Position numbers and translations under genes: made by a program. A DNA stretch of 64,000 bases from Sipunculus nudus (lineage: Eukaryota; Annelida; Sipuncula; Golfingiida; Sipunculidae). The stretch covers positions 90,373,142 to 90,437,141 of the forward strand of contig CM049306.1 of NCBI GenBank assembly GCA_026874595.1. Reading direction: 5' to 3'. The notes under the pieces are model-generated. The model was not told the origin of the DNA, searched no databases, and saw only the letters and a program-made list of their open reading frames with translations. Shown here in pieces: positions 35,501-62,500 of this stretch (position 1 is its first letter; every line of letters begins with the position of its first letter).

Positions 35501-38500
35501 ACCACCATTGAGTGTTTTTATAAAGTCTGCATTCATTGTGTATACACTACTGATCATGCTGGCTTATAACTGGTATGGCATCATGGCGGCCACATGATGT
35601 CAGTCGAATTAGAAATTTAGGACAACGTATATTTATAACCAATTCCATTCGGACATAATTTCCTGGAAACCGTGAATATCAACATCATGGTCACATGTAA
35701 AGACACGTGAATGAGAACATTATATTTGCCAACCAGTGTTAAAATTTGATCATTCAGCAAATTTTGCGATCTGGAATCAGTCTAGGCTACATGTTTTTCA
35801 TACCTAAGGAACTTACTTTGGTCATCTTTTTATGTTAAGAACTTCAAATGTAGAAGAATCTGTCACATGCAAGCATGGAACTAGGTCCTGCTATTTCTTA
35901 TACTTGGAAAAGGACAAATATTCTTATCAAATAGCAGAACAATGAGATCTCTCATAATTGCACAAAAAGGAAAAAGCACTGATTTTGGAAGTCATGTAGA
36001 TCAAGACTAGGAAGGAAAAAGTATACATCCAGTATGAATATTAATGAGATACCACTCAGTGATTGTGATTTAAGTGCATTTGCCAGGAGAGCCAGTCAGT
36101 GACAGATATATGAACGTCTTTATTATTTTATCAGAATAATTAGAAAAACCAGTATGGGTAGTGAATCAAAGGATAAGTTTGATGGTAAATTGAAGCTGGT
36201 GTACAGCTCCGCAGCAGACCCAGAGAAACCGCGGGATCACCAGGTATGGCTGTCCTTAATACTTCTCTGTGTCTGGTCAAATGATTTTGTAACCTTGCTG
36301 ACAAAAGCATTTCTACCGGCCTTCCTAGTGAAGCTTGCTTTATAAAAGAAGCAGGTAGAATGTCTGACTTGTGTGTCACCGATTGCCAGGTTCGAATTCA
36401 CATTCAGGACCGTTTCTTTTTCCACCTGTTACAATGGTGGCAGCGGTGGGATCCTAGTAGTTGGTGTCTTGGCATAATGATCAACCCAGTACACTTGTGT
36501 GGGCCCCAGGATAGCTCCCCTTATTCTGGGGACAGAACATTTCAGAGAAGGGGTGAATGTAACCATGAACTCAAAAGCATTCCTACTGGCCTTGGTAGTG
36601 AAGCTTGCTTTATAAGTAGACTGGGTAGACTTGTGTATCACATGTTGTGGGTTCCAATCCACATTTGGCCCTATTTCTATTTTCACCCATTCCAGTATTA
36701 TTGGGGATATTGTGTAAATATTCCTGCCAGTGCCATTTAATTGTTGATATAACATTTATTAACCTCTAAAATATGTACTATCCCATGTCCTTATGTTTTT
36801 TCCACATCAATCTTTTAGAGCAAATTAAGGTTACATTCTTGCTCCTGTGGCAGAACAAAAGCATAGCAATAAGCTGAAAGTAAGATAATACTGTGCCTTA
36901 AAAGTGCACGGTATATACACTTAATTCTGATATATGATTTATGAAATCCAGGATTTCATGTATATGCCAAATGGCAGCGTCCATGGGCAGATTCAATATT
37001 TATGAGAGGTCAGGGTGTGATAAGAATTGGAAACAGAAAAGTAGTACTCTGAGCACAGATGAAGGTAGAAAACTTTCTGTGGAGAGAGTTTATGGTCAAT
37101 AGAACTGTATCTTCCAAGTACATGCCAGAGGAATGCTTTGCCAGTGACTGCATGGGCATCCACACATTAATTATAATGAAGTTATATTAAACAAGATGAA
37201 ATAGTCTGAAACCTCATGTATACCTCCCCCAGGATCATAATCAAACCTTGTAATATGCTACACAGATAAATGTGTCATGTTTCACCAACTCCATGGTTTG
37301 ATCACAGGTGAGCTCTGCTAGCTAGAACAAAGGCAACCTTTAATGACAATGAACGGCTCTGGCCTTGGACAGGATACATAAATCTGGTCTTATGCCCTAT
37401 CTCACAATAGCAAAGAATCCTTAAAAAAAAAGATAAAAATAGTTATAATAGTTCACCATATTTTAAAAGTTTTACTATTTATTTGATAGATCCGTATCAA
37501 GATTGTGGAGGCACGACAACTCCAAGGAGCTAACATTAGCCCGGTCACACGTCTATCATGCGCAGGTCAGATGAAACAGACGCGGGTCCAGAAATCCACC
37601 AACTCACCGTTCTGGAATGAAGTGTTCTTCTTCAATTTCCACAGTTCACCAGTAGAGCTGTTTGATGAACTGGTCACATTCCAGGTAACAGAAACTCTTT
37701 TAAATCTGTTCATACTTAACAGCTGTATAAAAACCTTGTTCTGTCAAACTTGTTGAAGAGGAATATCTCATTTGTGTCAAATTTCAAGCTTTTAAGTTAC
37801 AGTGTAAACTTTAGTCAAATTATTAATTAAGCTTGCATGTGTCAAACTACAGTGTAGTTTCCATTCACTTATACATGGTGATAGTTTTACTCTTTTCTGA
37901 CTATTGTTTCAACAGTCTCTAACTTTGTCAGAGGTTTAAATGTTTGTTTATAGTACTTAGGACACCACCTGTCAGATAGTTATAATACAGAATTACATTG
38001 GGACTAAGGAAGTCCTTAACTTATTAGAAAATCACTCAAAAACCTAGTTCAGTTTATTTGTAGATGTATATATTCAAAATATATGACATGAAAATTTGAG
38101 TTGCTTCAGTAGAAAAAACAAATAAACCTTATACATATAAAGAAAATAAAAAATAAAGTAAGAAAAATTTGCCTTTCTGTATTTTCTTTTTTTTTCAGTA
38201 TATGTAAAAACATGTCTGAGAATGAATAAAAAGTTCTTCACTTTTTTTTACATTTAAACCTTTTTGATAAAAGTGATCCATGATATGAGAAGAAGGTTGC
38301 ATTTTCTTTGATTGTCAAAAAATTAACTCCTTTTATTCCTCATTCTTAGGTTTACAACTCCAGGAAGTTGAGATCTGATGCATTTATTGGATCATTCAAG
38401 GTATGTATTGACCACTGATGGTAGATATATAACCCACTTTACAAGAAATCTTGATTAAATATTGTGCACTTCCAAAACAAGGCAGTAAGCAACAAGGTCT

Positions 38501-41500: not shown

Positions 41501-44500
41501 AACATGTGTACACATAAAAGCAGGCTGTAGAATGTTTTATCATCTGTTTTTTTGTTGTTGAAATTGATAATATAAGTTGGATTTTTGTTTTCCACTTGCA
41601 TTTTACATGAAACCGACTTCATGATCCAGACAAATTAATCAATAAACTGACTAATTTTTGGGGAAATACAGAATAAAAAAAGTAATGTAAAGAGATGCAC
41701 TGTATTTTAAGAAATATCACAAACTGAAATTGCTGATCACTTAAATAAATTTAGAGTAACATTTACAGTTGAACCTGTGAAGGAAGGACAACTGGAGTGG
41801 TCTCAGTTCACAGGAAGTCTTCTTGGACGGGTCATTTATAATGAAATAAATGCTTACAGTTTAACAGAAGATGTATTGACAGGCATGTGGTCTTATTAGA
41901 GAGGTGATCTTTCAGACAGGTCCCACTGTATATGATATAATCTATGATTACATATGAAAATAAACGATATGGAATGGGTAAATTAGAAGGGCATCTGTGA
42001 TTTAAGTTGTGTCCTGTGTTTCGAAGGAGATTGTTTATAAGAACATCTGTTCTTGTGGAGAATGCTGTAAATATGAACTGAGGCATTACCTTTGGTATAC
42101 TTATGAGATCACTATTGTATAATGTGAGATTTTACTTGGACAGTATATAACTCCCTATCAGTAACACATAAAGCTTAATTAGCCAGAATCAATCTTTGTC
42201 TGCATCGGGCCATTTGTTTACATTCATGGGTGAGTGAACACCACTAACATTCAGTAATTTGGAAAAAAAATTTCTGAATGTCCATTATCTACTTATCAGT
42301 TAGTAGGGGTAAATTTTGGTTTCCTTATTTAAATTTCAGAGAAACATTTTTTTTTGGAAAAATAAAGATTTCAAAATTAGAGGTTAAACTGTTATATATG
42401 GTCACAGCATTTCATAAACTCATATGATTTAACATGGATTGCACAGTGAAGGTCATGGGTATCTGTTCTTTAATAAATATAATATTAAGTTATGGTTGGT
42501 TGATATATTTATGTACTATTGATATTATACATATATCAACCAACCATAATTATCATTGACTGTTGTCTATTTTATTAATTATCACTGTTCTTCAGGAACC
42601 TCCTGAGGCCCGCTGGGGTGATGCTGAGACCAGCCACATTCAAGCTGAGAATCTACAGAGCTGAAGACATCCCAAGGAGTAAGTTTTACTGTCAAACAAA
42701 GTTTACACATATTACATAACATTCAGTATATACACAGGTTTTATTGACAGATGTACTTTTGAGAGCAAAAGTTCCAATAGATGGCTTTTAGTTTTAGAAT
42801 GAACCTTGAATTTTTAAAAAAAAAAAGGATTTGACTAAATGCATATGGTGGGTGTCCATGGTATATTTATTAGCTCAGCTGACTTTCAGTCATGCTGGGC
42901 TATAGCGATGGGTCTTTGTCCGTCGTCCTTCCGTCTGTCCGTCCGGCCGGCCGTCCGTCCGTTAGCAGGGCACAAATCGTAACCGTAGGGGCTAGGGCCA
43001 TGAACCCTATGCAGTCTTAGAGGTTATAAAAAGATCTCCTTGCAAACTTGAAATTAGGTCACCATGACCTATATTCTCGAAGTTATGGGGTGTGTTTGCA
43101 CCCCCCAGAAATAACTCTTTGAGACAAAATATTTATCCCAAACCTTCCATCTTTCACATACAGCTCACCTACCAACAGGGGAAGAACCATAATTTTTTTT
43201 AGGTCAAAAGGTCAAAGGTCAAGGTCACAGGAGCCTCTTCTTTGAAAAGCCTGTGGATGCATTTTAAGCCAACCCTTTCATCCCAATTCTTTGATCTTTC
43301 ACATATAGCTCACCTACTAAGTTGGAGAAGAATCCTATAGATTTTGAGGTCACAAGGTCAAAGGTCAGGGTCACAGGATCCACTTCTTTGAAAAGGTTGT
43401 GGACACATTTCAAGCTAGACTTTTCACTCCAAACCTTTCAGCACTGATATGGCTTCTCTGCCAACAGGGGAAAAGACCTGTTGATTTTGAGGTCAAAGGT
43501 CAAGTTCACAGCACCCACTTCTTGCATGGAGTAATTTTCAGGCAAACTTTTCAATCTGTACCTTCCATCTGTCATATATGGCTTACCTACCAATAAGGGA
43601 AGAAGCCTATTGATGTTGAGGTCAAAAAGTCAAAGGTCAAGGTCACAATATTTAATTGTTCTAAATGCTTGTTAGCATATTTCAAGTGTAACTGTTCAAC
43701 CCAAACCTTCAGTCTTTCACATATGCCACATCTATGCATCACTCAGTTTGACTCAAACTTCATATTTATGGGTCTTTTTGCTTGAATAAATAACTTATTG
43801 ATTTTGGGGTCAGCTGGTCAGCAGGTTAAAGGTTGCAGGTCAAAGTTATTCACCCATTGGTTGCCAAGTAATTACACCAGATTTAAGTAGTTAGTAGTTA
43901 CCCATCATTTAGAAAAAATCCAGTTGATATGTGGGCAAAAGGCCAAGGTCATAGGTCAGTGATGTTCACAATTACTTATTTTATAGGTCAGTGATGTTCA
44001 CAATTACTTATTTTATAGACCATCTCTATTTTTCTTGTATATATAACCATCCCACCCCAGCTGGTAATCTCCCTGTGTGGCTGTAATTGTGAGTGACACT
44101 GGTGACATATGACTCCCTTTTGTTTCAGCCTATTAAGTGATAAGGATCAGTGATAAGTACCTCGTTACTTCATAACAAAAACACTGTTGTCTGAATGTTT
44201 CAGCCAGGCATTAAGACTATGAGAGTATAGTATTAAGGTTTAGCTACTGATTTATAAGATGATGGGAACATTTTGCAGTTTATTTTATGGAATCCTAGCA
44301 ATAAACATAGTTTCCTAGATATCTGAATATTTTAATATATATCACTACATATAAAAGCAAGTATTTGTTCTCATAATATGTGGATGTGTACCTTGATTTA
44401 GGATGGCTTTTTTTGTTTTATTTCAAGACCCTTAGTCATGCTTTCTGCATTTCTTTTCTTTCAGGTTTGGCAGTTTACCTACCCTGCTGACCCCATTGAA

Positions 44501-47500
44501 AAGCAGAGTGATAATAAAAAATTTTGGACTTACACTTTTTACAATTGCATATCTATAAATCTGATATGAGCGCCTGGACATGCCTTTTGAATTATTTTGG
44601 GCATTCATTACTGGATAATTTGCCCTAAGTTTGGTCTCTTATTGGAGAATGTGGGATATCAAATGTCATACTTGTCAGAAATCCATTATGTCTGCCAGTT
44701 AGCCACCTAAGAAATTATTTCTTCAGTGCAGTTTCAGTAATTTTTCTTTAATGTTTGGTCCGATTTAGAGAATGTTTGTTGTCTAATTTCAGACTTGTCA
44801 AAAGTCCAATATGGCCACCAGGCAACCATCTTTTAATTCCTTTTGATCATATTATCTCAAGAACAGTTAAAGTGAATGCAGTTGGATGTATATTTATGTA
44901 ATCTTGTAAAGGATTGGGTCAAATATTTCTGAATAAATATTACCATCATTTATAAAAGTGCAATACAGTTGGGTTGTATTGAATAAAAATTCATACAGAA
45001 GCACCTGTTTCTCAATAATTGCATCCGCCAAAACAGAGTTTTGCGGATACTAGGTTTTCAGCTGCACACCGCTGCTGCCGCGTAGGTGTCCGGAGAACTC
45101 CTCCATAACCGCTGGGCAGAATTTTAGGAAACCCGGGATTATGTTCAGTTCACATGTGAACTGCTGCACGCCAATTTTGTTTTGACCTCTGACCTTTCTT
45201 CTGCACTCTGCGTCAGTTTGTGTGTCTGTTTCCACACATAAACCAACATATCTCGGGAACCGTTTGACCAATCAGGAAATTTTTTTGCACAAATGTAGCC
45301 CTTGGAGAGCTGTTTAACATACAAAAAATGGTGGCGCCACCTGCAACCATGTTTCCACAGTGTCCATCTGTTTGTATGCCTTGGGTTAAAATCACTCATA
45401 TCTCCGCAGTGGTTTGACTAATTCACCTGAAATTCAGCATGCGTATACAAATATAGCCCTGGGATAGCTTTATAACATATACAACAAAAGGTGGCGCCAC
45501 CTGCAACCATGTTTGCACAGTGTCCATTTGTTCATCTGCCTGGGGTTAAAATCACTCATATCTCTGCAGTGGTTTGACTAATTCACCTAAAATTCGGCAT
45601 GCGTATACATCCTAGACAGCTTTTCTGATTTTATGACAGGTGGCGCCACCTACATTAACGTTTACGCTGCAGACATCCAAGCTCATATCTCGGGAACCGT
45701 TTGACCGATTGAGCCAAAATTTTGCATGTGTATAGATCTCACATAGCTCTGTATCATACGCAAAACTGGTGGCGCCACCTGCAGCCATTTTTGCACAGCT
45801 CCCGTCTATTTGTCTGCCATGGGATGAAATCACTCATATCTCTGCAGTGGTTTGACATATCTGCCTAAAATTTTGCAGGTTTATACATCCCCGACAGCTC
45901 TCTTGATTTTATGACAGGTGGCGCCACCTACGTTCTACATTTATGCAGCAGATATCCAAGCTCATATCTTGGGAACCGTTTGACCGATTGGGCCAAAGTT
46001 TTGCATGTGTATAGTTCTCACATAGCTCTTTATCATACGCAAAACTGGTGGCACCACCTGCAGCCATTTTTGCACAGCGTCCATCTGTTTGTCTGCCAAG
46101 GGCAAAAATCACTCATATACATGTAGTGGTTTGACTTATCTGCCTTAAATTTTGCATGTGTATACAACTTGGACAGCTTTCTGGATTTTGTGGTAGGTGG
46201 CGCAACCTACATACACAATGGGGCTGCAGACATCCATGCTAATATGCAAAACTTCACTCTATTTCCCCTTGCCACTCAATCCATGCCTCACTTCACCAGT
46301 TCCACTCTGATTTAGGTGGATACACGTAGTCGCTTGTGGACTACCCGTATTCTAGTTCTGGCATGTATTTCCTTGATTTTTGCTATATATTTTGATCTTA
46401 TATTTGCCCTTTGTGAAGTTCCTTATGAGACTGACAGGTTTCAAGCAAGCTGTTGGAATAGTTCCTGATAGCTTAACAATCATACATTTTCCTCAGACCA
46501 TCAATTCACTGTGTTTTAACCAGACATAGGTGATATATATTTCTGTTGTCATAGAAAATTTTCAACAAATTGGCAAATTGGTTCTTCAAAATTTGACTGG
46601 AAGTTGTGAATCTCAGGCCATGATGTCACAGGTCATGCATGGCAGCTGAGCGTCATGACCCATGGGTCACTTGTATAATTTATGATAATGTTATTTTTTG
46701 CAATACCATGCAAACTTTATATATGTTGGTTCAGACATGAAACTTATGGTTCAAAACATGTACTTTGTCTCCTTAGAGATTTCACGTTTTTTGGTCTAAA
46801 CAGAAATCTTCAACCAGACTTAAAATGATCTGTTAATCAGTATTTATATACATATTGATGATGGAGCTTTAATGAATGGGGATATTTCCTGGCAGAAGCT
46901 GCATATCTGTGGCAGTGGAAGCTTTGTTAAAGCATCCCTCCACAGTCTTGTACATACAGCATTACATTGTTATATTCATTTCTAATGTGGGCGATTTTAT
47001 CATGTTGATGCTGTTTTCAGTGGATTCTGACTTTATGCAAGGAGTTAAGAGCTTCTTTGGAAGTGATGAAAAGAAAGAACTTGTTGACCCCTATGTCATC
47101 TTCAGCTTTGCAGGACAGGAGGTGAGTATATGTTAATCTTATGTCTCTCTAAAACAAATGATCATCTGGTCCTGGTCATCAATGTTCAGAGATGGGTAGT
47201 TCAGATGAATTAACCAAGCTTAGATGTGGCTCTGATAACAATATTATATTTTGTTATGACTTTGATAACATTAAAATTATATTGTGTTCTGACTCTGATA
47301 ACATATTTTGTTATGACTCTGATAACATTTATCATGTTCTACTTGAGGATGCACATTGAATGTTAGCAATATTTTATAAATTGGCAAATTAGTTCCATGA
47401 AGTAACATGCAATGAAGGAATGAAGTGTTGGCCTTGTGATATACTGAAACAAAAAAAAAACAACACCTTTCAAATGCATTTAAGAAATGGAAGAAAATTT

Positions 47501-50500
47501 TAATTATATGTTGAAGTATGTGATTTTTTCCCTTTTATACCATTCTTCCATACATTTACCTTTTTATTTTTAAACTTTCTGATACATTTTAAATGTCATT
47601 GCTGGTATTCCAGGTGTGTAAATATATTTATACATGCAACTTTTTATTGCAGGTAAAATCAAAGATCATGTATTCAAATGACCACCCAGAGTTCAACCAG
47701 GAATTAAATCTTGGCATTAAGGTGAGTGAAGTGAGCCAAAAGTTAAGATTATGGTTAGGATAATTTCTTGAACCAAAATTCTAAAGTTTGCAGTCTTAAG
47801 TTTTCTCAGATTAAGAGAGTTCTGTAGTATTAACAGTTTGTGAACCGTAATATATCTCAATCAGCTGGTTACCAACATCATGTAAGAATGTTCAATAAGT
47901 ATTCTGACCTCAAAATGTCTCATTGGCTGTTCTGTAGCTAGTATGTCTGACATTATCAACAATACAGGCTGCTGTAAGCTGTGATACTTCATTCTGGGGG
48001 GGGGGGGGAGGCAACACTGGTACATATGAATTACTAAATATCCACCTACTATACAGATTGTACTTAATTAACGCATGATAAGATTAAGCTACAGCACAGA
48101 TTGAAAACTATGACAGTAAGGAAAAAAGAGATTTTCATAGATGGTTTATCTGATGTATAATGCATATATGTAGAAAACTTTTGTGCTGTTGTTTAAAAAA
48201 AGTTGTAATTCTGTAATAATAAAATTTGGAATATCTTAATTTTCCCAATACTTTTTGTGGCAGTTCCCATCCATGTGTGAGAGACTCAAACTGCAGATGA
48301 TGGATTGGTGAGTTTGGTGTTTTCATTATACTCCTTGTGTTCTGTATGAAATCTGTAAAATAATGCTTATATGCATAGGTATACACTGGTTCATTCTCTA
48401 CTGTAATATTTGATTTAGTCAAAAGTTTATACTTTACCTGTCTTGTTTTATGATTATAAAAGACTTTGTTCTTGAACATAACATTTTTGTTCTTAAAAAA
48501 TGAAATATATTAAATTTAGTCTGTACAAGGTAAGATATAATTAAATATTTTTATGGGGCTGTACTTTTAAGTTTGCCTAATTAAGTCAGTTTCTCCCCAA
48601 GTTTCAGACTTTTTTTTAGGGATGCAGGATTCAGAAAACCACAGAGATCCAAGGGGAATGAAACTTCAGTAATGCAACTATATTCCAGACTGAGCTGGTT
48701 GCCTCATTTACGGAGTGGTTGCCAAACAGAATCCCGTTTTGTTTGACACTGAATATATCATACTATTTTACCATGTGTATGTTTGATATGAATGTATTGA
48801 TGTTTTGGTGCCAAACAAAAGTCCACCCAGACAAAAGCCTTTTCTCTAAATTAAGGGCAGTCTTCTTGCTTCATAGTATTTGATCATAACAATATAGAAA
48901 AAATAATATAAAGAACAATAAAAATATAATAACTGATTCAGCAAAATGTTGAGGCTATTTTTAATTTTGAACAGTAATCGGGTTAAGTACTTGTATGCTC
49001 TTCTAGGTCCAGATTTTGTGCCAAGTGATTTTGCCAGGGTGGGCTTTCGTGCATTGCCTTTGTTGGTATTTGGTAAAGGAAATGATATTTTGAAATTGGT
49101 TTGGTGTATGGGATAATTATGTTGCTCTGTTATGCTGCCGTATTTGAGTTGGGTCTGGGTTCTTTTATGTTTGTCACAGGGACCGTATCACAGAGGATGA
49201 CTGCATCGCATCCGAATCAATCGGTGTATCAGCCATCTCTCGCTCAGGAGATGAGGGTTCGTCTTTTGTCACGTGGTTGCATGCTTTAAATCCTTCCCTC
49301 ATCCTGCCAGCTAATGAGCTAATGCCTTTATGCTATGAATATACCAGTACAATAGAGCTTGTTTGTGTACAAATATGTGATTGATCCAAACAGCCACATC
49401 CACATCTACATACTTAGTTAAGTGTTCAGATTATTCCAATTTACTTTGGGTTTAATTGGAAAAAGGCCTTAACGCTATGATAAACAAATGAAATAATCTT
49501 TTTATAACATAAATCTATTTCAAAAACAAAATTGGCAAAATAAAAATACAACATCTTGTCGTTATGTTGGATCTGAAGTGGACAATGTCAAATGCTTTCA
49601 TGATATCATCAAACCAAAATGATCTTATTTATTTTATTTTAGTTTAAAGTTAACTTTACCTTTTATTGAATCACACTTGGCAGAGCATTTCATGGTGATG
49701 TACTTTATGGTAATTTATGAACTTGTCAATAACTCCAAACCCCACCACGTATTGTGATTGTGCTCATTTGTGTGTAGGTAATGGTTGTGTGAATGTACTG
49801 CAACTGTCCATGTGTTATTTAGCAAGTCCTGAATTATCAAATGAGTGAATATTAATGTCTTGTGAAGAGGAATGTAGTCAGTGAATGTTATCCTTTGAAT
49901 ATGTCGTGTATAATTATAAGATTATCTTGATTTTTATCTGAGATTCAGTATTCCTCGCAGTAAGGAACCATCAAAATGTGTTGATTTAATATGTATCTTA
50001 TGTTCTATGAACAAAACTAAAAATTTTCTTAAATCAGGTAAACAAAATTTTTTATCGGTAATCAAAAGGTCTCTTCAGAAGCAGATGATGGTGTCATTTT
50101 GTGAAACAATATTTTACCTCCAGTAAATGCTTTATTCCTGTATATTCACTCAAATTTGACAATAGATTATTGCTGAAACTAAGTATGAAATAAATGTGCT
50201 GTAAAAAATCATTGTTATCTTTTACACAAGGTATTTCATATTTGTTGAAACCAGGATGAATGAATGTGGACAATTAATGGTCATGAAAATCAGAATTGAT
50301 TTGATGAGGATACTAACAAGAGCATGCCACAAGTAATGATTATAATAATGTCACTAATAATGTCACTAACAAGCATGATTTTGTTCATTTACAGTTCCCA
50401 GCTGTTTGTTAATGTTCCCATGCATCCAGCCAGTGAGGATAATTCTAAATTATATCCCTTTCACACAAAAGAATGGTTTCAAAATTTTTTGGACTGTGGG

Positions 50501-53500
50501 TAAATCAAGGTGGTTGTAAAATATTTTGTGCATTCATTCAGACAGTATACATTGATTTTCCTCATCATGGATGGGTCCATCAGTTTTCACATGTAACTCG
50601 TTGATACACATTTTGTACATGAAGCATCTAGGGGACAAATTTGAAGTACTGTTGCTTGTGCACTAAGAGACTCTTGCTTTTTTCTAGACCAGAAACAATA
50701 TCAAAACCTACATTTGAAAAAAAATTGTTTATCCAGACTGTAATTGCTGTGTGAATTCTCAAGAGGCTTTGGAATGTCACCTGACTTCTGAGACATTTTT
50801 TATTTCTAATGTGAAAGGGGTATCATTATGAGCCTCAGTTGATGAATCATAGATTATGTAAATTGTATGATTCTATGAATTAACGTTTTTACAGCACAGA
50901 TTGGCCAATGGTGAACTAACTTGATTACTAACCAGACATTGCATGTTGGCAGGGACCGACTAACTGAGGATGATACAATAGGAACCACGTTCATCTCCAT
51001 CTCACATGTATCAGCAGCTGGGGAACCTGGTGATGTTTCTTTGTTAACGCTGGCTATTTTAGCATGCTTTTACTTTTACAGACTCCTATTATTTTTGACT
51101 ATATATAATACTTTATTTATTAGTAACATCAGCTTATAATTTGGTTTATTTTCAATGGGCCCTTGGAACCTCCATCTGACTTTTTATCTTAATTCACTAT
51201 TCCTGTCTGTTAGTTGTTGAGAAATATTAGTCAGTATAAACTGTTACACAAAGCTTGGGCTTGGCTTTTGTATTCTTTTCACCAAATAATATATCTTATT
51301 GATTCTGTTTGACCTTCAGACATTTCTGTCTGTTTGAAGGTCAAATATTAACAGAATTCTAACATATCCAATGTTTGCTTGTTCAGACATGGAATATTTT
51401 AGTTGATGTCCAAGGTATAACTTAAACCTATTCAGTAGCTGAGGTACAATTAGTAAAATTTTTACCAGAGGACTCCTCATATTTGTGGCCCAATGAGATG
51501 AAACCCTTTGAATCTTGAATTTTGTAATAGTCAATTCTTCATTCACATAAGTTACTTTTGATCTTTGATTGGAATTGAATTGGAATTTAAGCCCATGGGC
51601 ATGAATTTATGAACAAATTTTCCAGCACCCATGTTTTCCTTATTAAAACTTATTTGTAATTGTTCATCTCCTGGATTAGTTTAATTTGACCCTTTTTATG
51701 GTTGCCTCAAGGAGCATGGTAAGCAGTTGAAAGTTTGATAATAACACATATTTGCCAATTGAATTTCTTGCTATCAAAATATTGAATTTCAAATCATGTT
51801 TACCGACATACTGAAGTTTCATAAATCTTTTTAAAATTGGAATTGAATCTGAATTTAACCTTGATGTCTGTTAAATAACCTACAATTTAACCTTGATGTC
51901 TGTTAAATAACCTACAGTCTTTTTCTGTCCAGTTTTGATCTTCTTTCCCTGGTTCAGGGAGTTAGCTGTGACTAACATACAAATCCAACTCTTGACATCT
52001 GGTGACCTTTATTTGACCTGTGGTGACCTTCATTGCCTTTTGATAACATCTCCTTTTGACTTTGGTGAATTGCTGATAATTTCTCTTTGCCTTTCCTGAA
52101 TATTCTTTTTTCTAACTTAGGGTTTTCATAAGACCTATGATATTACTGCTATAAACCTGGTGTGAAAGTTCCTTTTCAGTTTGTCAGTTTTATATTCTGT
52201 AGTTTTCTGATCATGTGATTTTCTTCTGTTCAGGGTGATGCAAGTGTGTTTCATTTTGAGTTTGCAAAGGCATGGTGTGGGTTTAGCTATTACATAAATC
52301 ACAAAATATTATAAAATTAGAACAATAATTCACTAGATATTCAAGAGTCTCATTTTTACACATACTTCAAATTATTAACATTCAGTCAGGTTTCAAAGAG
52401 CCAATGATTAAGTAAAAGACATTTTATTAACCAGTAGATTATCTATTACAGCTAAGAGTTAGAACATTAATAGTCACATCAAAGTTTATTTATTTTAGAT
52501 ATGGAAAACAATGTATTGAAAGCAGATACAGTGCTGAATCAGTCTTAAATTTCTGAATGAGAAGTTCTAGTCATCTAAGACTATATCATGTCAACATATA
52601 TGGACATTTGACTCCATAATGTATATATATATTTATTCATATCTAAGATGGTTGTCTGTTCTTTTATTTGCTAACACTCAAGCAGACAAGGGAGAAGGAG
52701 GTAACTTGGAACTCCTTATATATAACTAATATATTTCACGTGTATTTAAATTTCACTTTGGTCAGTATTGGTCATATTGGTGTTCCTTGCACAGTGTTCA
52801 GAAAAATAATCCTCTTTTAATAATTCCACAACTGTTAATGTTTTAAATAATTCTCAAGTTATTTTTCTAACAGTAAGATACACTAAAGAGTTAATTTTAT
52901 ATAAAGAAATTTCTGAATATTCACTTTTGACACTTATTCTCCTCAGAGATATTTTCAAAAATGTTATCCAGCTGTTTAAGAGGTGTTTACTGGACAGCAT
53001 TTTCCATTCAGAAACTTGTTAAATGTTCACATAACACTCACCTTTAACTTTAACATTCTGCGCATATATGCACCAATGTGATGTGATGTTAATGCTGCAG
53101 GTACATTTTGTTTTGTCTTGTCTGTAATGTTTGCTGTGTCTTTGTCTTCCCCCCTTTGTATTGTGTCTTGTCTGGCTCACCTATCTTGTTTATATTGTCT
53201 TGTGTGGCTCAAATATCTTGTCTTGTGTACTTTGTTTTGTTTTGACTCATACCTTATATACTTTGTCCAGTCTTCTTCAGATATTTTATGTTCAGTGTCT
53301 TCTATTTGGTATTTTAATTTGTGTGGCTTATATTTTTGTACTTTCATTCATGAACAACATAATTTTTATGTATTGTATCTCTCAGCCCCCACCCCAGGGC
53401 TCCCAGTACATTTCTAACTACAAATAGTAGTGAGATATGTGGAAAGGTTATGGTAAAGTCTTTTTTACCATAACTGCTGCAATGTGTTTTTATGTTTGTT

Positions 53501-56500
53501 CAATAATCCTAGCCTTATCTTGCAAAATTCACAAATCTTAATTGATCTAATACCACTAAATATTATGATAAATTATCTCAACAGTTGAAAATGACCCATA
53601 TCCATTGTTTTAGGAAATTTCTCTATACTTTCCATATTAAGCAAATACATACACGGATATATGAAGCATCCTTCACTATTAGTGGCTGTGTATGCAAATG
53701 TAGTGCACAATCATTGTATAATAGACTAATCATTGTATCCCCAGACAAAGTCGGCGGATACTATGTTTTCATACCGGTCCCCCCGCTGCCACCGCCACCG
53801 CCGCCGCCACATATAAATCTTGTTGGCGCGATAACCCAAAAATATTTCACGGAACTTTACCAAACTTGGTATATGTATAGATATGGGTAAGAGGACGACG
53901 CCTATTTAAAATGAGGTCATGACCTTTACTAGGAGAGTGTCCTTGACCTTGATTAGGTCCAATTTTGGGGAAAATCACACAAATTCTTTAATATCTCAAG
54001 AAATCTTGCATGGATTTATCCAAAAATCAAATTGATGGAAGATCATGGATAGGGTTGTCATGTTCCAGAAACACCTATTATTCTTTACTTGTTTTCGTGC
54101 CGTTTAATACCCCAAAAATTGCCACCTTACAGTACTGTGAGCATTATAAGTCAAAAACTAATGGACAGATTTCTTTTATATTATGCATATACATAGGTAT
54201 GGGTTATGGGAAGATGTTTATTTAAATTAGGGTCATGACCGTTCATATGATAGTGGCCTTGACCTTGAATATTGCCATATATGGTGAAAATCACACACCT
54301 CTTATGATATCTCCAGTGTTGATAGCCATATGGATTTCAAACATGACTTATGTATGGCCCACCACTAAAGTAAGAAGCCTATAGGTTCTAGGGTCTTGAG
54401 GTCAAAGATCAAGGTCAATGGACTGGCATTTTAAAAGATACTGTGGATGCATTTTAAGCCAAATTTTCATCCTAGGTCTTCCATCTTGAATATATAGCTC
54501 ACTTGCCGTTAGTGGATGATCCATATAAATTTTGGGGTCACAAGGTCAAAGGTCAAGGCCACAGGAGCTATCTGTCCAAAAATTAGTTTCTGGATGATAA
54601 TTCCTGCTTTTATTGATGTATTGATTTCAAACTTGACTTGTATATGTCCCATTGGAAAAGCAAGACCCAAATTGATATTGGGGTCATGAGGTCAAAGGTC
54701 AAGGTCACAGGACACATCTTTAAAAAGATTGTGGATGCATTTTCAGCCAAACATTTCATCTCAGATCTTTCATCTTGCACATATAGTTCACCTGCCAAGA
54801 GAGGAAGAACTCTATCAATTTTCAGGTCACAAGGTCAGAGGTGAAGGTCACAGGAGCCATCTGTCCAAAAATTAGTTTCTGGATGATAATTCCTTCTTTT
54901 ATTGATGTATGGATTTCAAACTTGACTTGTATTTGACCCATTGGAAAAGCAAGACCCGAATTGATTTTGGGGTCATGAGGTCAAAGGTCAAGGTCACAGG
55001 AAATCTCTTTAAAAAGATACTGTGGATGCATTTTCAGCCAAACAATTAATCTCAGATCTTTCATCTTGCACATATAGTTCACCTGCCAAGAGTGGAAGAC
55101 CCTATCAATTTTGAGGTCACAAGGTCAAAGGTGAAGGTCACAGGAGCTATCTGTCCAAAAATTAGTTTCTGGATGATAATTCCTGCTTTTATTGATGTAT
55201 GGATTTCAAACTTGACTTGCATATGTCCCATTGGAAAAGCAAGACCCAAATTGATTTTGGGGTCATGAGGTCAAAGGTCAAGGTCACAGGACACATCTTT
55301 AAAAAGATGTGGGTGCATTTTCAGCCAAACATTTCATCTCAGATCTTTCATCTTGCACATATAGTTCGCCTGCCAAGAGAGGAAGAACCCTATCAATTTT
55401 GAGGTCACAAGGTCAAAGGTGAAGGTCACAGGAGCCATCTGTCCAAAAATTAGTTTCTGGATGATAATTCCTTCTTTTATTGATGTATGGATTTCAAACT
55501 TGACTTGTATTTGACCCATTGGAAAAGCAAGACCCGAATTGATATTGGGGTCATGAGGTCAAAGGTCAAGGTCACAGGAAACCTCTAAAAAGATTGTGGA
55601 TGCATTTTCAGCCAAACAATTCATCTCAGATCTTTCATCTTGCACATATAGTTCACCTGCCAAGAGTGGAAGACCCCTATCAATTTTGAGGTCACAAGGT
55701 CAAAGGTGAAGGTCACAGGAGCCATCTGTCCAAAAATTAGTTTCTGGATGATAATTCCTGCTTTACTGAGGTATAGATTTCAAACTTGACTTGCATATGT
55801 CCCATTGGAAAAGCAAGACCCGAATTGATATTGGGGTCATGAGGTCAAAGGTCAAGGTCACAGGACACATCTTTAAAAAGATCAAGGTCACAGGACCAAC
55901 ATCTTCAACAAGATTGTGGATTGTTAGATGGAAGAAACAATAAATATGCCAAGTGTCAGTATATGCTGCTAAAAATGGGGGTCTATTCTTAAAGGGGGGG
56001 CCTACTATGTCTGGGGATACTCTGGCACCTGCGGTGCCAAGAAATGTCTAGTTAATAATAATTTTGTTATGTCCTTGTGTGTGGATTATATATATATGTG
56101 TGCAAGTTTCTTCAGGGAATGTATTTGGTATTAATTGTACAATATAGAAAAATTCATATTTCAGTTTAATCTGTTGGAGTTCTTTAAAAACCAAAAAAAA
56201 AAATCTCTTTTCTAATCAACTCTAAAGAATAATATTAATGGTAAGGAGTTAATTAATGTAAAAAATTATTCAAAGCCATAATATGTAAGTACTTTGACAT
56301 TTTCAACAGAGAAAGTGTGCCTCTTGTCTTACAAATAGTAGTGAGATATGTGGAAAGGTTATGGTAAAGTCTTTTTTACCATAACCGCTGCAATGTGTTT
56401 TTATGTTTGTTCAATAATCCTAGCCTTATCTTGCAAAATTCACAAATCTTAATTGATCTAATACCACTAAATATTATGATAAATTATCTCAATAGTTGAA

Positions 56501-59500
56501 AATGACCCATATCCATTGTTTTAGGAAATTTCTCCATACTTTCCATATTAAGCAAATACATATACGGATATATGAAGCATCCTTCACTATTAGTGGCTGT
56601 GTATGCAAATGTAGTGCACAAGCATTGCATAATAGACTAATCATTAATAATAATTTTGGTATGTCCTAGTGTGTGGATATATAAATGTGTGCAAGTTTCT
56701 TCAAGGAGTGTATTTTGTATTAATGGTACAATATAGAAAAATTCATATTTCAGTTTAATCTGTTGGAGTTATATAAAAAAAAGTGTTCTAATCAACTCTA
56801 AAGAAAAATATTAATGGTAAGGAGTTAATTAATGTAAAAATATATTCAGAGCTATAATATGTAAATACTTTGACATTTTCAACAGAGAAAGTGTGCCTCT
56901 TGTCTTGCTATCAAAATTCTAAATGTATTTAATAAATCTCGATATTTGTGTATAATGTTTCCACCACAAGTGCTTAAATAGCATGAAACAAAGATTCAAT
57001 TTTTTGCTGTAATTTTGTATGCTCTCAACCTGTGTATAAAATATGAGAGACAATAATTTGTGTAACAGTTGTTGAAAATATTAATATTTATTGCATGGCA
57101 ATATGCAATATAATATTTTAAACAAGTTGTGTGTCAAATAGTTCAATTGATTGGTTGTATTTGAATAATTTAAAATATAATATAAAATGATACTTGATAA
57201 ATTATTTTGAAATCTGATTACAAATAATAAGACAATATTTCTTTATATTTTGGAACTTCTCAAAGAATTTCAGGTATGAGGTTATGAGATGTTTTAATCC
57301 AAAATAAGTAAAATAACACACCACATGTATTGAAATGAAAATTAAAAATCTGCTTAAATGTTTATGTATTAATTCAGGTTTCCAATTAACATTGATTTTT
57401 TTCCTCCAACAGGATTCCTGCCAACCTTTGGTCCCTGCTTCCTCAACTTCTATGGTTCGACCAGAGAATACTCGGACTTACCTGATGAGTATGATGACCT
57501 CAACCTCGGAAAAGTAGGTCAACTGATGTTGAATTTTCAAGTAAAATTTAAAAAGGATAGTTTCTCACAAGTTCTCTATAAGTAACATTATGTCAATAAA
57601 GAATAAGTAAAAATAATAAATAAAAAAAATTCAACATACTCTGGGTGCAGATCGTTATTTAAATTCTGTGTGATAGAGTTCGACATCTGGAGTCATGAGA
57701 ACTTTCAAATAAAAAGTGCATAATACCTTAAGTTTAAACTTTTCTTAATGAAACCCACTGGGGCATAGTAAATTTTCTGCTAATATTGAGTTCTGACTTT
57801 TTCAGGCCACATTTCGTGGAATGCCTGTGGTACATATCAATGCCTGATGCCTTATTTCAGGGTTCCCACTGATCCTTAAAAATCCTTGATAAATTTTAAT
57901 GCATTTCCAAGGCCTTGAATTTTATTCGTATAGCTGCCTGTGCTACACCAAAATCAGGTGACTTAATTGTTAACACAGTTAATATACCCTTGTGAGGTAC
58001 TATATTATCCCTCAACTTGAATCAGTCTTGTGTCTACTTTGAAAAGAGTTTGATTTTCCAGTAGTTGGGTTTGAATTGCACTTTAATTTAAAAATAGTCA
58101 CTTAATAAATATAGTAATAAAGTGATGATTAAAAAGAAAAAAAATTAAAGAGATTTGGATAGCTGTAGAAAAAAGGGTGTAAAGGAGGAATTAAAATAGG
58201 AAGGGAAGTTTTTCTTGAAAACCTTGACGACCTTGAAAATGCTATTAAAAAAATGTGGGAACCTTGATTTATCAGCTTTTTATTTACAGCCCCTTTTGAA
58301 TGGTGTGTTAAGGAATGTGAAACTTATTACTTGTTATGCTGTTGCAGTTATGCTGTTTGGATCCCAAGCTTCCATTAGGAACAATGATGACCATATATAT
58401 GATATAGGGCTTGCATATTGAATAATATTAACAAGAGTGACATTTAATTATGTTTTTTAACCTCATTTAAACTCATTCACAGAATCATCTTTGTAAATGT
58501 GTAACTTAAATATATAAAGAAAAATATCTGTCCAGATATATTATGAAATTGTTGCAAATTAACTCTTGAATTCTGACTTCTTCATTTGGTTTTCTCCTGC
58601 CTGAACCAGTGATGATGCAGATATGTTATAATCAGAATTCTGATGAGAGACCATACATATTGTGTTCAGACTTTATGGGTTGTGTGTATTTCTGACCTGA
58701 CCTGTACTAACAGTATGATGTATTTTGACATGCAGCATATTTTCAGCTTTGACCATTTGCACTAACATTTGACTCAAAGCTTGAACTGGTCATATGTTTC
58801 ACAGGGAAGATGAAAAGTTCTCTAAATATCATCAACTTCATATGATAATTATTAAAAGAAACAGAAAGGTCTTTTAATCATATAAAAATGAATATGTTTT
58901 TGTAATAAGCATTATTGTACCAAGCTGTGGTTTAAGTAGTTGAGCCCTTTCACATATCAATTGTTTGAGATGTAAACAAAATTAACTTAATTATATAGCT
59001 CAAAAGGTAAAACAGTAATTTATCTTGTCCAAAGTACTATATTTGTGACTTTACCTTTTTCAATATCCAGACTCATTTTGACAATTATCACAAGTCTTGT
59101 CAGGCTATAAATGTACTGATTAGCTTTATATTGACATGTGGTAATATTGACAGGGTGAAGGTGTGGCGTACAGGGGCCGGGCCCTGGTGGAGCTGGTTAC
59201 AGTGCTGGGGGAGAGCCCTGTAGTCGATGTAGAAGACCTCAACCAGGAAGACCAGTGGAAAGTCCAGGTAAGAATATGATTGGTAGGGCTTGATACTGAG
59301 AGAAATTAATTAGTTATTGATTACCAGCAGAGATGCAATGAGGATTTATTGATAATCTCACCTAATAACCACTCCAGTTTAGTGACCACCTCAAAATCCT
59401 GAACACATTTTCATAGTCCCAATTCCTTTTTGCTCTCTTTTAGATCTCTTTTAGACAACCACCATGAAAATGTTACCATTTTATAGAGGTCTGGTTGGTG

Positions 59501-62500
59501 ATAATAATTTCAATGTTTCACTGTATTAGGGTTAAGCATCAAGATATAAATGAAATGGGTAGGACATAACCAAGTGGTTAAGGGGTAGGAATTTGTTCCT
59601 GGTTTGAACCCTGCTGTTGCCTCAATGGCATATTGGTGTAATCTCATTGAACCTCGGAGATTCACTCCAATGTCTTAATGACAGGTTATGACTGATTGAC
59701 GATTCCTTACCCCGTGCATATTAAACCTGAAATCCAGAAGGCTTAATAAAAACATATCATTCTTACTGTAGAGATACCTTCATCCACATTCAATAGATAG
59801 TGCCACCAACAGGCCATGAAACTTTCTGTATAAAAAAGAAGAAGATATAAATTAGGAGAAGCATGTACTTCCACTCAATCCCTAACCGGGAAACCAGATA
59901 GAAGCCTGTAGATGTACACAAAGGTTAAGATTAGATAAAGAAACATTAAAAATGGAGGTGGTTACCTCCAAAGAAAAACAAATTGTGACAGTGGTTTTTG
60001 GAAAGGAAGTCAATCAAATGAAACATGCCTAGTTTTTGGGTGATTACCCCAGGATTACTCAACCAGGATTTAAATCTTTCTTTTTCAGAAATTCATGCGG
60101 CGGCGGAAGTACAAGCTTCATGCTGCTTTCTTAAACGCAACAATGGTCAGTGAAGTAGATGCCCCAGTGGAATTTGAAGTCAGCATAGGTAAGGACATCT
60201 TTGAATAAGGTAACAGTATTTTCTCCACCCCAAAATTGAATTTGAATTGTAGATCTTAAGGCATATGCATTTACATGAATTACACCTGAATGCTAAATAT
60301 GACAGTATTTCTTCAGCTTGTAGATTGTCCGTTAAAGTTGGATTTTCTTGGGATCTTCAGATATTGTTTGATCATATTTTTTACATACATGGCCAAAGAA
60401 AAATAAAACATTTCTCAAACAAGGAAAAGTTGTTTTTGTATAACCTGCAGAGTTAATAAGAAAAAAAAATTTCCAGGTAACTATGGTAACAAATTGGATG
60501 AGAGTGTGCCACCATGCAGTTCCACCACACAGCCAACCAATGCGGTGTTTGACGGCTGTCACTACTACTTCCTGCCATGGGGTGACACTAAGCCGTGCGT
60601 CGTCGTGGACTCTTCCTGGGAGGACATCAGCTTCAGACTGGAAACTATGAATCTCCTGGAGGGAATCATAGAGAGACTGGTCAGTCATGAAATCTCTCTG
60701 TACTATCTTTGGATTCTTATTACCATTTCCTATTTTCTCTATGTTAAAAGGCATCCATTTGCACAGTTCTTGTAGGCCAAGGCTTAAGTTTTGATAAAAC
60801 GGAAAATTATATGAGAAATAGAAAGTTTTTTATTTACCACATATTATGCGTGTAACAAAGTTGAAAACAGAAAACAGTGTATAAAGAAATATCAGATTCC
60901 TCAATAAAGATACACATTTATTTACTTATACATAAAGATGTTTTGGATTTAAGGGAGTCAGTTGTTGAGCATTCACCCAGAAAGTGAAAGGTCTAGGTTT
61001 ATATGTCGGGTACTAGGAAACTTAGATTTATGATGATAAATTTTTCACAGCTGTAAGTATAAGATCTTAAAGTTAGAGAACATCAGTTGGTTAAAGCATT
61101 TTGCCTCGTCTTTCAGGAGACCAACATGGAGCATGTACGTGTGGGTCTTCAGGCGAACCTGGAGGGGCCAGAGCAGGCTCAGTTGATGATTACACTGTTA
61201 GATACACTTATTGCTGACTGCAGGTATGTAACAGTACAAAACAATACACAATCTGAATTCAAAGAGGAAGTGAATGAGATTTCTTTTTTTTCAATCCTTG
61301 TTGATGATGTACACCTTCATTTGGAGCCATAGTGATGAGCTCTACTGTCTGTTAGTAATGTATGTGTGTGAACTGTTCCAGGTGACAAAATATTCCAAAC
61401 AGTTTCTTAAATTCAGTTCAGGTGAACGTAACAGGTACCAATTATGGGTCTCCCCTGTGCTTAACTGATTTTCTGATTTTCATTGAATTTTTTTTAATTT
61501 CATTCTTCAAATTTGGTTCTTAAAATTGGATTATTTAGTATAGCCAAATTATAAATTCTTACATTAAATTTTTTTTGGTGATTTGTTCTGTTTCTTGTAT
61601 AATGTTCATTGTGGATATCTGTCAACTTTTCAAGACAGATGTTTTACTTTCTGTACTTTCTAATATTCTGATATTGCTGTCTTATTAAATATTGACTTTG
61701 CACAATCTCTTTTCACCCATATCACCTTGATTCTGAGTTTTGTTGTGCTACATATCACAACTGAATTTCAACTTACTTTCTTTGATAGAAAACCACTGCC
61801 TGTGCCTGAAGATGGTCGTCATGTTCAGAATGACCTTGACATTCAGCTTAGGAGCTACCGAGAAACAGAGCTGAAACATGTCCTGAAGGAGAGTGTGAGA
61901 CTGAGGGAGAATGCGACTGACGTAGGGGAGACTCTGCAGGAGGTCGAGGCTTTCCTGGGCATCCTCAAAAACACGGCTGTTGAGGTGAGTCTTCCTGTAC
62001 TGTGTATATTCAGAACGTCAGGAAGTTGGACGTTGTCTATTTGGTAAAGACATTAATAACACAGCAGCAGATCCATAGTTTGAACCCCACTGGTTCAAAC
62101 CACTGGCATAATTGGTGAAATGTTGATAGAACCTCAGGAATTTACTCTATTGTCTCAAAGACAGTGTAAGAATTCTGAAAAATCTGTAGTCCCTAGCAAA
62201 CCTGAAACCCATCATGCTCTATATTTAAATAATAATGATATATAATTCTTATCATATGGTTCCCTTCATTATCATTCAATAGACAGTGCCTCCTACAGGC
62301 CAGGACCTTTTCTTTAAAAAAAAATCAAAATCTCAGCTGCCAAAAGTTTATTCTTATTAAAATAGATGCAAAACCAAGAAGAAACAAGTTTCTCTTAATA
62401 CAGTGTTTGGATGTAATGCTTGTCTTTTTGTGCTGAAATTGCATTTTCAGGTTATAAACCAAGGTAATATCTTTTAAGATTAGAATTGGGTTTAATAGAA

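What the first reader, a model, noticed from the sequence alone, without database searches (positions are those of the whole stretch)
49180..51029. Mutually exclusive duplicated exons that swap Ca2+-loop 3 of ferlin C2C
Two exons 1.7 kb apart are each exactly 77 nt, both complete the Trp codon from E15 and both leave one G for E17. They encode [15 protein letters not shown]... and [15 protein letters not shown]..., identical at 11 of 25 residues by my count. Because 77 is not a multiple of three, including both or neither breaks the frame, the hallmark of mutually exclusive exons. The swap keeps the acidic loop but changes the following strand, so it could tune Ca2+ or lipid binding of C2C. 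E16a also has a weak donor (GTTCGT), suggesting regulated or rarer use. I do not know of this arrangement in vertebrate ferlins.
Basis: partly seen in the sequence, partly recalled or inferred. Interest (0 to 1): 0.82.

Follow-up and report, generated by a model that had tools for sequence, protein, structure and literature searches.

The report
Swappable exon pair in ferlin gene
A large membrane-fusion gene of an animal carries two interchangeable versions of one short exon, so it can probably make two forms of a calcium- and lipid-binding domain; exon swaps of this kind are known, but I found no report of one at this place in a ferlin.

Summary
E16a (49180-49256) and E16b (50953-51029) are both 77 nt, both finish the Trp codon of E15, both leave one G for E17 (57413), and share 11 of 25 residues. 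Either alone gives a clean dysferlin/myoferlin-type C2C; both, or neither, gives an early stop. Of 144 open AG-77-GT frames (the pair included) E16a scores 59 against E16b; the best of the other 142 scores 8. Third codon positions look saturated while protein is conserved (omega about 0.1, 2dlnL about 10), so E16a was long under selection. Human dysferlin has an exon with the same junction phases. Correction: all loop-3 Ca2+ ligands stay the same; the swap changes the next strand (beta6) and the start of the beta6-7 loop. Both donors are weak, not only E16a's. Proposed switch: UGCAUG (RBFOX) 22 nt after E16a and 13 nt before E16b, the only two between 46637 and 54006. No transcripts or orthologous introns were available, so use of E16a is inferred. 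New member of a known kind.

The parts
42597..42678 (+). C2C first-strand exon ([27 protein letters not shown]); upstream edge not fixed exactly
   Evidence: aligned to myoferlin/dysferlin C2C
47021..47121 (+). C2C exon ([33 protein letters not shown])
47653..47721 (+). C2C exon ([23 protein letters not shown])
48264..48307 (+). E15, 44 nt, [14 protein letters not shown] + TG of Trp; constant exon before the pair
49180..49256 (+). E16a, 77 nt, alternative exon [25 protein letters not shown]; donor AGG|GTTCGT (weak)
49278..49283 (+). TGCATG (RBFOX-type motif), +22 to +27 in the intron after E16a
50915..50920 (+). ACTAAC, first of two STAR/branch-point-like elements before E16b
   Evidence: reading as STAR element recalled
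50927..50932 (+). ACTAAC within TTACTAACC, candidate branch point of E16b and second STAR-like element
   Evidence: inference
50940..50945 (+). TGCATG (RBFOX-type motif), -13 to -8 from the E16b acceptor, where a polypyrimidine tract would lie
50953..51029 (+). E16b, 77 nt, canonical exon [25 protein letters not shown]; donor CTG|GTGATG (weak)
51062..51066 (+). GCATG (as AGCATG), +33 from the E16b donor; counts against a simple RBFOX switch
57413..57513 (+). E17, (G)[33 protein letters not shown]; constant exon after the pair, carries the L4 region
59154..59267 (+). E18, [20 protein letters not shown]...
37490..37753 (+). open frame holding a C2 exon upstream of FerI (C2B by position); exon edges not fixed
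   Evidence: Pfam C2, 37.7 bits
39012..39158 (+). FerI exon of the same gene
61778..61984 (+). stretch holding the FerA exon of the same gene; upstream edge not fixed
   Evidence: Pfam FerA E 3.6e-5, below its curated cut-off
63675..63818 (+). FerB exon of the same gene
   Evidence: Pfam FerB E 1.1e-4, below its curated cut-off

Best explanation
E16a and E16b are a tandem duplication of one ancient exon (the counterpart of human dysferlin exon 16) in a type-1, dysferlin/myoferlin-like ferlin gene, and are spliced mutually exclusively. Shown from sequence: equal length, same phases, homology, one-and-only-one frame rule, purifying selection averaged over both copies. Inferred: each is used in some tissue; a wrong choice (both or neither) is removed by nonsense-mediated decay. 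The two proteins keep the same Ca2+ ligands in C2C loop 3 and differ in the loop tip (Ile/Leu), strand beta6 and the start of the beta6-7 loop, so the swap most likely tunes C2C membrane affinity, domain stability or packing in the rigid ferlin core, not Ca2+ binding on/off. Most likely switch (hypothesis, about 0.35): both exons have weak donors; an RBFOX protein binding UGCAUG just after E16a promotes it and, binding UGCAUG within the E16b acceptor, blocks E16b; without RBFOX, E16b is the default.
For: Structure and frame. Not chance: score 59 against at most 8 among the other 142 open frames; tblastn E 2e-4 to 4e-4. The E16a DNA with flanks matches one place in the genome. Selection: omega about 0.08-0.10 (grid), 2dlnL 9.8-10.3 for kappa 1.5-3; 31 of 50 first+second codon positions match against 7 of 25 third positions (one-sided Fisher p 0.005); a neutral E16a would be intact in 1% of simulations at 1 substitution per site without counting indels. 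Both C2C isoforms match the Pfam C2 model (52.5 and 47.0 bits) and myoferlin C2C. Human exon with the same junction phases: c.1397+ and c.1480+ variants (PMC7674836; PMC5091283) put the junctions in Trp466 phase 2 and codon 494 phase 1 (numbering). The two donors are the weakest of 13 scored. TGCATG placement; joint positional frequency 0.0003 within 30 nt. An RBFOX-type RRM exon is in the genome. Precedent: C. elegans RBFOX proteins repress egl-15 exon 5B through a UGCAUG in the intron before it, and help choose unc-32 exon 7a, presumed to have weak splice sites, through a UGCAUG in intron 7b (PMC3585155, passages).
Against: No RNA evidence. No orthologous intron from any relative could be searched. 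E16a's donor (GTTCGT) is poor: 16% of all GTs in the window score as well or better (5% for E16b). E16a lost the aromatic residue at position 13 that E16b, dysferlin, myoferlin, otoferlin and both paralogs have. Pairwise omega averages both copies, so recent loss of function of E16a is not excluded. The RBFOX motif was noticed after the fact; plain GCATG also occurs at 50322 and 50373 in the intron between the exons and at 51062, 33 nt after E16b's donor, and the last would favour E16b. The unc-32 site lies differently from the sites here. The Pfam Fox-1 C-terminal family gave no match over its cut-off.
Confidence: 0.82

Rival explanations
1. E16a is a relict: a formerly used duplicate that is now silent or spliced only as noise, kept intact by recency of its loss.
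For: Weakest donor of 13 scored; loss of the aromatic residue of beta6; E16a is further than E16b from human C2Cs (BLOSUM 51 and 48 against 65 and 68).
Against: No stop, indel or splice-dinucleotide loss; simulated neutral survival is 27% at 0.2 and 6% at 0.5 substitutions per site even without indels, so any loss must be recent; E16a still matches the C2 profile well.
Confidence: 0.09
2. E16a is a regulatory (poison) exon: it is included together with E16b, the frame breaks three residues into E16b, and the mRNA is destroyed, so that it lowers ferlin output.
For: Double inclusion gives a stop at once.
Against: A poison exon needs no conserved C2 coding sequence, equal length or matching phase; third-position saturation with protein conservation says that the protein sequence matters.
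Confidence: 0.04
3. E16a is an alternative end: when its weak donor is not cut, translation runs on into the intron and yields a short soluble ferlin.
For: The frame stays open for 42 codons after E16a's last full codon, to a stop at 49382-49384; AATAAA at 49539.
Against: AATAAA is common here (84 in the window, one per 761 nt); the exon ends exactly where E16b ends and keeps a GT there; nothing shows that the run-on is coding.
Confidence: 0.03
4. The exons are exclusive, but through competing RNA structures or steric hindrance rather than through a splicing factor.
For: Both mechanisms exist elsewhere (PMC6071210, search listing; PMC7969005, passages).
Against: The intron between the exons is 1,696 nt and the likely branch point lies close to E16b, so no steric clash is expected; the best base pairing between the introns (only the first 2,500 of 6,383 nt of the third) is within the shuffled range: 9, 25 and 11 of 30 shuffles reach it.
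Confidence: 0.05

Closest known systems
Human dysferlin (DYSF) exon 16 and alternative exon 17 in C2C
   Same: Exon 16 covers the same stretch with the same junction phases; the exon just after it (17) is alternative and its exclusion shortens the beta6-7 subdomain of C2C, with tissue bias (skipped form typical of blood, effectively absent in muscle; PMC9333456, passages).
   Different: I take exon 16 to be single in human (not tested here); exon 17 is a cassette exon, not one of a duplicated pair.
Otoferlin (OTOF) exons 47/48
   Same: A ferlin with two exons that replace each other by tissue (PMC10394277, passages).
   Different: These are C-terminal transmembrane exons with their own stops, not internal exons of a C2 domain.
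OGDH exons 4a/4b
   Same: Duplicated, mutually exclusive exons in a Ca2+-regulated protein (PMC7969005, passages).
   Different: There the swap turns Ca2+ sensing on or off; here the Ca2+ ligands are the same in both. Exclusion there is enforced by distant branch points.
C. elegans egl-15 exons 5A/5B and unc-32 exons 7a/7b
   Same: Pairs of exclusive exons with UGCAUG and RBFOX control (PMC3585155, passages).
   Different: Tested genetically there; only motif positions here. The unc-32 site lies after exon 7b, unlike the sites here.

Membership tests
Mutually exclusive tandem-duplicated exons (criteria of PMC3228551, passages) | Similar length | tested here: met
   77 and 77 nt
Mutually exclusive tandem-duplicated exons (criteria of PMC3228551, passages) | Matching splice-site type and reading-frame phase | tested here: met
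   AG...GT, same phases on both sides
Mutually exclusive tandem-duplicated exons (criteria of PMC3228551, passages) | Homologous peptides (relative score above 15%) | tested here: met
   59/126 = 47% by ungapped BLOSUM62, not that paper's own program
Mutually exclusive tandem-duplicated exons | One and only one exon gives an open frame | tested here: met
Mutually exclusive tandem-duplicated exons | Transcripts with each exon and none, or few, with both | not testable with these tools
   no RNA data held
Ferlin family | C2B-FerI-C2C order and C-terminal tail (features in PMC2923515, passages) | tested here: met
   C2 and FerI exons in order before C2C; Ferlin_C at C1:90483685 in the same orientation, 46.5 kb past the window
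Type-1 (dysferlin/myoferlin-like) ferlin | DysF motifs | tested here: inconclusive
   PPPGWRWDGEW and PAGWEWEDAW near gene positions 65908 and 66912 look like DysF motifs (recalled); the Pfam proxy PF06398 gave nothing over its cut-off
Type-1 (dysferlin/myoferlin-like) ferlin | Closer to dysferlin/myoferlin than to otoferlin | tested here: met
   stretch with E16b: myoferlin 232.5 bits, dysferlin 215, otoferlin 159.4; the two paralogs share otoferlin's one-residue gap in loop 3, this gene does not
Ca2+-binding C2 domain | Loop-3 ligands D-W-D-x-x-T-x-x-D | tested here: met
   present in both isoforms (ligand list PMC12264198, passages); Ca2+ binding itself not tested
RBFOX-switched exon pair | UGCAUG near the exons and an RBFOX gene in the genome | tested here: met
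   motifs; gene: one RRM exon only, while the Fox-1 C-terminal family gave nothing over its cut-off
RBFOX-switched exon pair | Exon choice depends on the sites and on the factor | not testable with these tools
   needs a minigene or knock-down

The most novel reading that the evidence does not exclude
An RBFOX-controlled splice switch re-tunes the main Ca2+/phosphatidylserine-binding C2 domain of an invertebrate dysferlin-like protein between tissues, without changing its Ca2+ ligands. In the same genome an otoferlin-like paralog has two interchangeable tail exons, so duplicated exons would be a general way in which animals with few ferlin genes make what vertebrates get from six.
Probability: 0.27. 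Interest if true: 0.68.

Novelty: new member of a known kind. Interest (0 to 1): 0.5.

Why it matters
C2C is a major membrane contact of myoferlin, with three Ca2+ ions and a bound phosphatidylserine (PMC12264198, passages). A natural pair of isoforms that holds the ligands fixed and varies the strand behind loop 3 is a ready-made experiment on how that strand sets membrane affinity or core rigidity. It also lies next to the place where human dysferlin has its own tissue-biased alternative exon, which hints that this part of C2C is a repeated target of splicing. If relatives keep the pair, ferlin function could be studied tissue by tissue in an animal with few ferlin genes.

Tried and rejected
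Third E16-like copy: none between E15 and E17 by tblastn (elsewhere in the window only a 10-residue match to E16b at 1865-1894, E 0.43). The genome searches with each exon peptide found only that exon itself, not its partner, so they would also miss a diverged copy elsewhere. An all-against-all comparison of + strand ORFs of the gene from position 30000 on (E up to 0.01, pairs within 12 kb: 468, of which those under 65% identity were printed) gave mostly repeat-like pairs, the DysF-like pair, some weak isolated pairs and E16a/E16b. I read this list by eye and did not check exon borders of the other pairs. Competing RNA structures: no excess over shuffles; the shuffle kept base composition in 50-nt blocks, not dinucleotides, and used the first 2,500 nt of the third intron. 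Alternative in-phase donors for E16a: 49376 scores -0.47 against -1.17 for 49256, so it is slightly better by these weights, but it is 120 nt past the homologous end; I kept 49256. DysF by PF06398: nothing over cut-off. Fox-1 C-terminal family: nothing over cut-off; an RRM exon was found instead. Organism: not determined; the molluscan haemocyanin family gave no match, with no positive control, and the strong COX1 matches were bacterial in type. Splice-site weights are recalled human-like frequencies, not fitted to this species; of the 10 acceptors listed one (C2Cmid) was entered one base off. Structure prediction and fold search were not run, because a spliced product is not encoded letter for letter in one frame of the window. 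Relatives of the exon pair in viral or metagenome contigs were not searched (the one query was too short).

Paper searches on novelty: 'ferlin' + 'mutually exclusive exons' (3 papers, each with one 'ferlin'; listing only, not opened for this), 'C2 domain' + 'mutually exclusive exons' + 'calcium' (2 papers, listing only), 'ferlin' with tandem or duplicated exon terms (187 papers hold two terms; one listed, none of the 15 with 'ferlin'). In these searches 'ferlin' matches only at the start of a word, so papers that say only dysferlin, myoferlin or otoferlin are missed. In the texts of PMC9741552 and PMC5740500 'ferlin', 'MYOF' and 'OTOF' do not occur at the start of a word, and the one word starting 'dysf' in each is 'dysfunction(s)'. 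All this covers only the held open-access library.
Full report
What is there. The window lies at C1:90373142-90437141 of a 1.43-Gb assembly in 153 contigs. It holds the first part of a ferlin gene on the + strand: a C2 exon (37490), FerI (39012), C2C exons from 42597, FerA (about 61778) and FerB (63675), with a Ferlin_C tail exon at C1:90483685, 46.5 kb past the window. Sequence comparison with solved chains puts C2C closest to myoferlin and dysferlin (232.5 and 215 bits) and further from otoferlin (159.4 bits). FerI marks two more ferlin genes, on C4 and C6; both are otoferlin-like in loop 3 and encode the E15-E16 stretch in one unsplit exon, with one copy found in the 10-kb loci searched.

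The pair. E16a (49180-49256) and E16b (50953-51029) are each 77 nt with AG before and GT after. Both complete the Trp codon begun in E15 (48264-48307), and both leave one G for E17 (57413-57513). They share 40 of 77 bases and 11 of 25 residues; identity by codon position is 14, 17 and 7 of 25. Spliced with E16b or E16a the protein reads through as a full C2C; with both, a stop comes three residues into E16b; with neither, a stop comes in E17.

Not chance. Scanning both strands of the window and of four 10-kb loci gave 609 AG-77-GT frames, 144 open in phase (the pair included). Scored without gaps against E16b, E16a has 59; the best of the other 142 has 8; their mean is -24.3 (sd 10.7). The E16a DNA with flanks matches one place in the genome, so it is not a spread repeat, within the limits that the tool states. 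The peptide searches each found only the query exon and not its partner, so they do not rule out diverged copies elsewhere.

Selection. A pairwise codon model gives omega near 0.1 (0.08 to 0.10 for kappa 1.5 to 3, on a grid) and rejects omega 1 with 2dlnL of 9.8 to 10.3. First and second positions match at 31 of 50, third positions at 7 of 25 (one-sided Fisher p 0.005). If E16a had drifted freely, it would be intact in 6% of simulations at 0.5 substitutions per site and 1% at 1.0, before counting indels. The model averages over both copies; I conclude that E16a was long constrained, not that it is used today.

Age. In human dysferlin, splice variants written c.1397+2_1397+3insT (PMC7674836, passages) and c.1480+18T>C (PMC5091283, passage) place exon ends at the second base of codon 466 and the first base of codon 494. 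Residue 466 is the Trp of loop 3 by the numbering of the 2080-residue chain, on the recalled assumption that the transcript numbers the same protein. If these are neighbouring junctions, as the recalled exon number 16 implies, the human exon has 83 nt and the same two phases as E16 (77 nt). The pair is then a tandem duplication of an exon older than the split of vertebrates and this animal, in a gene whose otoferlin-like paralogs lack this intron. E16b scores 65 and 68 against human dysferlin and myoferlin, E16a 51 and 48: E16b is the canonical copy. When the duplication happened cannot be told from 25 codons.

What the swap changes. In membrane-bound myoferlin, C2C L3 binds three Ca2+ through D444, W445 (backbone), D446, T449 and D452, with R447, L448 and K450 at the tip, and L4 residues bind the phosphatidylserine head (PMC12264198, passages). 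By the alignments these ligands correspond to D and W from E15 and D, T, D from either E16; all are the same in both isoforms. The L4 residues align to E17. Within the first seven residues of E16 only one differs (Ile/Leu); in the last 18 only five agree. These 18 form beta6 and the start of the beta6-7 loop (strand names from PMC9333456, passages; placement is my reading). E16a lacks the aromatic residue found at position 13 in E16b, dysferlin, myoferlin, otoferlin and both paralogs, but the strand still fits a C2 domain: Pfam C2 falls only from 52.5 to 47.0 bits, and protein kinase C alpha has a similar strand. I infer tuning of membrane affinity, stability or packing, not a Ca2+ on/off change.

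How the choice may be made. Steric exclusion is unlikely with 1,696 nt between the exons, and base pairing between the introns (the first 2,500 of 6,383 nt of the third) is no better than in shuffles. Both donors are poor: E16a -1.17 and E16b 1.31 are the lowest of 13 donors scored with recalled weights (others 1.99 to 8.40). E16a has a good pyrimidine tract (0.76); E16b a poor one (0.47), though E18's is poorer (0.41), among 10 acceptors. TGCATG occurs 39 times on the + strand of the window; between 46637 and 54006 there are just two, at +22 after E16a and -13 before E16b. Random placements with the same spacing have one within 30 nt on both sides at a frequency of 0.0003; since I looked at several known motifs, a fair figure is nearer 0.003 (my estimate, not computed). 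Two ACTAAC elements lie just before E16b, usable as branch point or STAR-protein site (recalled). The genome has an RBFOX-type RRM exon: 34 residues at 85% identity to a query recalled from memory. RBFOX proteins in C. elegans repress egl-15 exon 5B through a UGCAUG in the intron before it and help choose unc-32 exon 7a through one in intron 7b (PMC3585155, passages). Against it: plain GCATG also at 50322, 50373 and 51062, the last 33 nt after E16b's donor; the Fox-1 C-terminal family had no match over its cut-off; and motif presence is not proof. I give the pair itself 0.82 and this switch about 0.35.

What is known. Mutually exclusive duplicated exons are a well-described kind; E16a/E16b meets the three sequence criteria of PMC3228551 (passages), where 90 of 16,180 exons not spliced this way shared such features. 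Ferlins have other alternative exons: dysferlin exons 5a, 17 and 40a (PMC8650162, passages), and otoferlin 47/48 (PMC10394277, passages). I found no report of a duplicated exon in a ferlin C2 domain (searches; texts), in an open-access library only and with search words that miss papers naming only dysferlin, myoferlin or otoferlin. So: a new member of a known kind, at a functionally telling place.

Limits. No RNA, no related animal genomes and no structure model were available. The species was not identified.

Noticed in passing
L017 (C6:9342500-9349000, minus strand): C6:9345819-9345989 and C6:9342934-9343107: The otoferlin-like paralog on C6 has two tandem, homologous transmembrane-tail exons, each with an acceptor AG, the same start (SRPDTSFLWFMNPLKTL) and its own stop (..KKMMGA*..KKIWGA*), the arrangement described for mammalian OTOF exons 47/48. 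Whether this is shared ancestry or convergence was not tested.
   Followed up: partly
54391-55882, and similar repeats near gene position 107043-109028 (in L016): An array of about 5 copies of a 287-289 nt unit (91% matches) lies in the intron E16b-E17; related repeats recur later in the gene region.
   Followed up: no
about 53434-53588 and 56345-56499: Stretches with the same or nearly the same ORF peptides flank the tandem array on both sides, as if array and flanks belong to one mobile or duplicated element.
   Followed up: no
G000 contigs C60, C61, C62, C66, C72, C74, C75, C89 (two places), C123: Nine COX1 genes with nearly equal scores and one other are open under the standard code on small contigs; beside the one on C60 lies an ORF that looks like cox2 (my reading). 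They look like bacteria assembled with the animal. Among the 80 relatives kept of a capped scan the best identity is 58%, so the bacterium is far from the species kept there.
   Followed up: partly
48264-48307 / C4 and C6 paralogs (L006 5409-5528, L008 5531-5412): The intron in the loop-3 Trp codon is present in this gene and in human dysferlin but absent from both otoferlin-like paralogs here, a possible marker of the type-1/type-2 split.
   Followed up: partly
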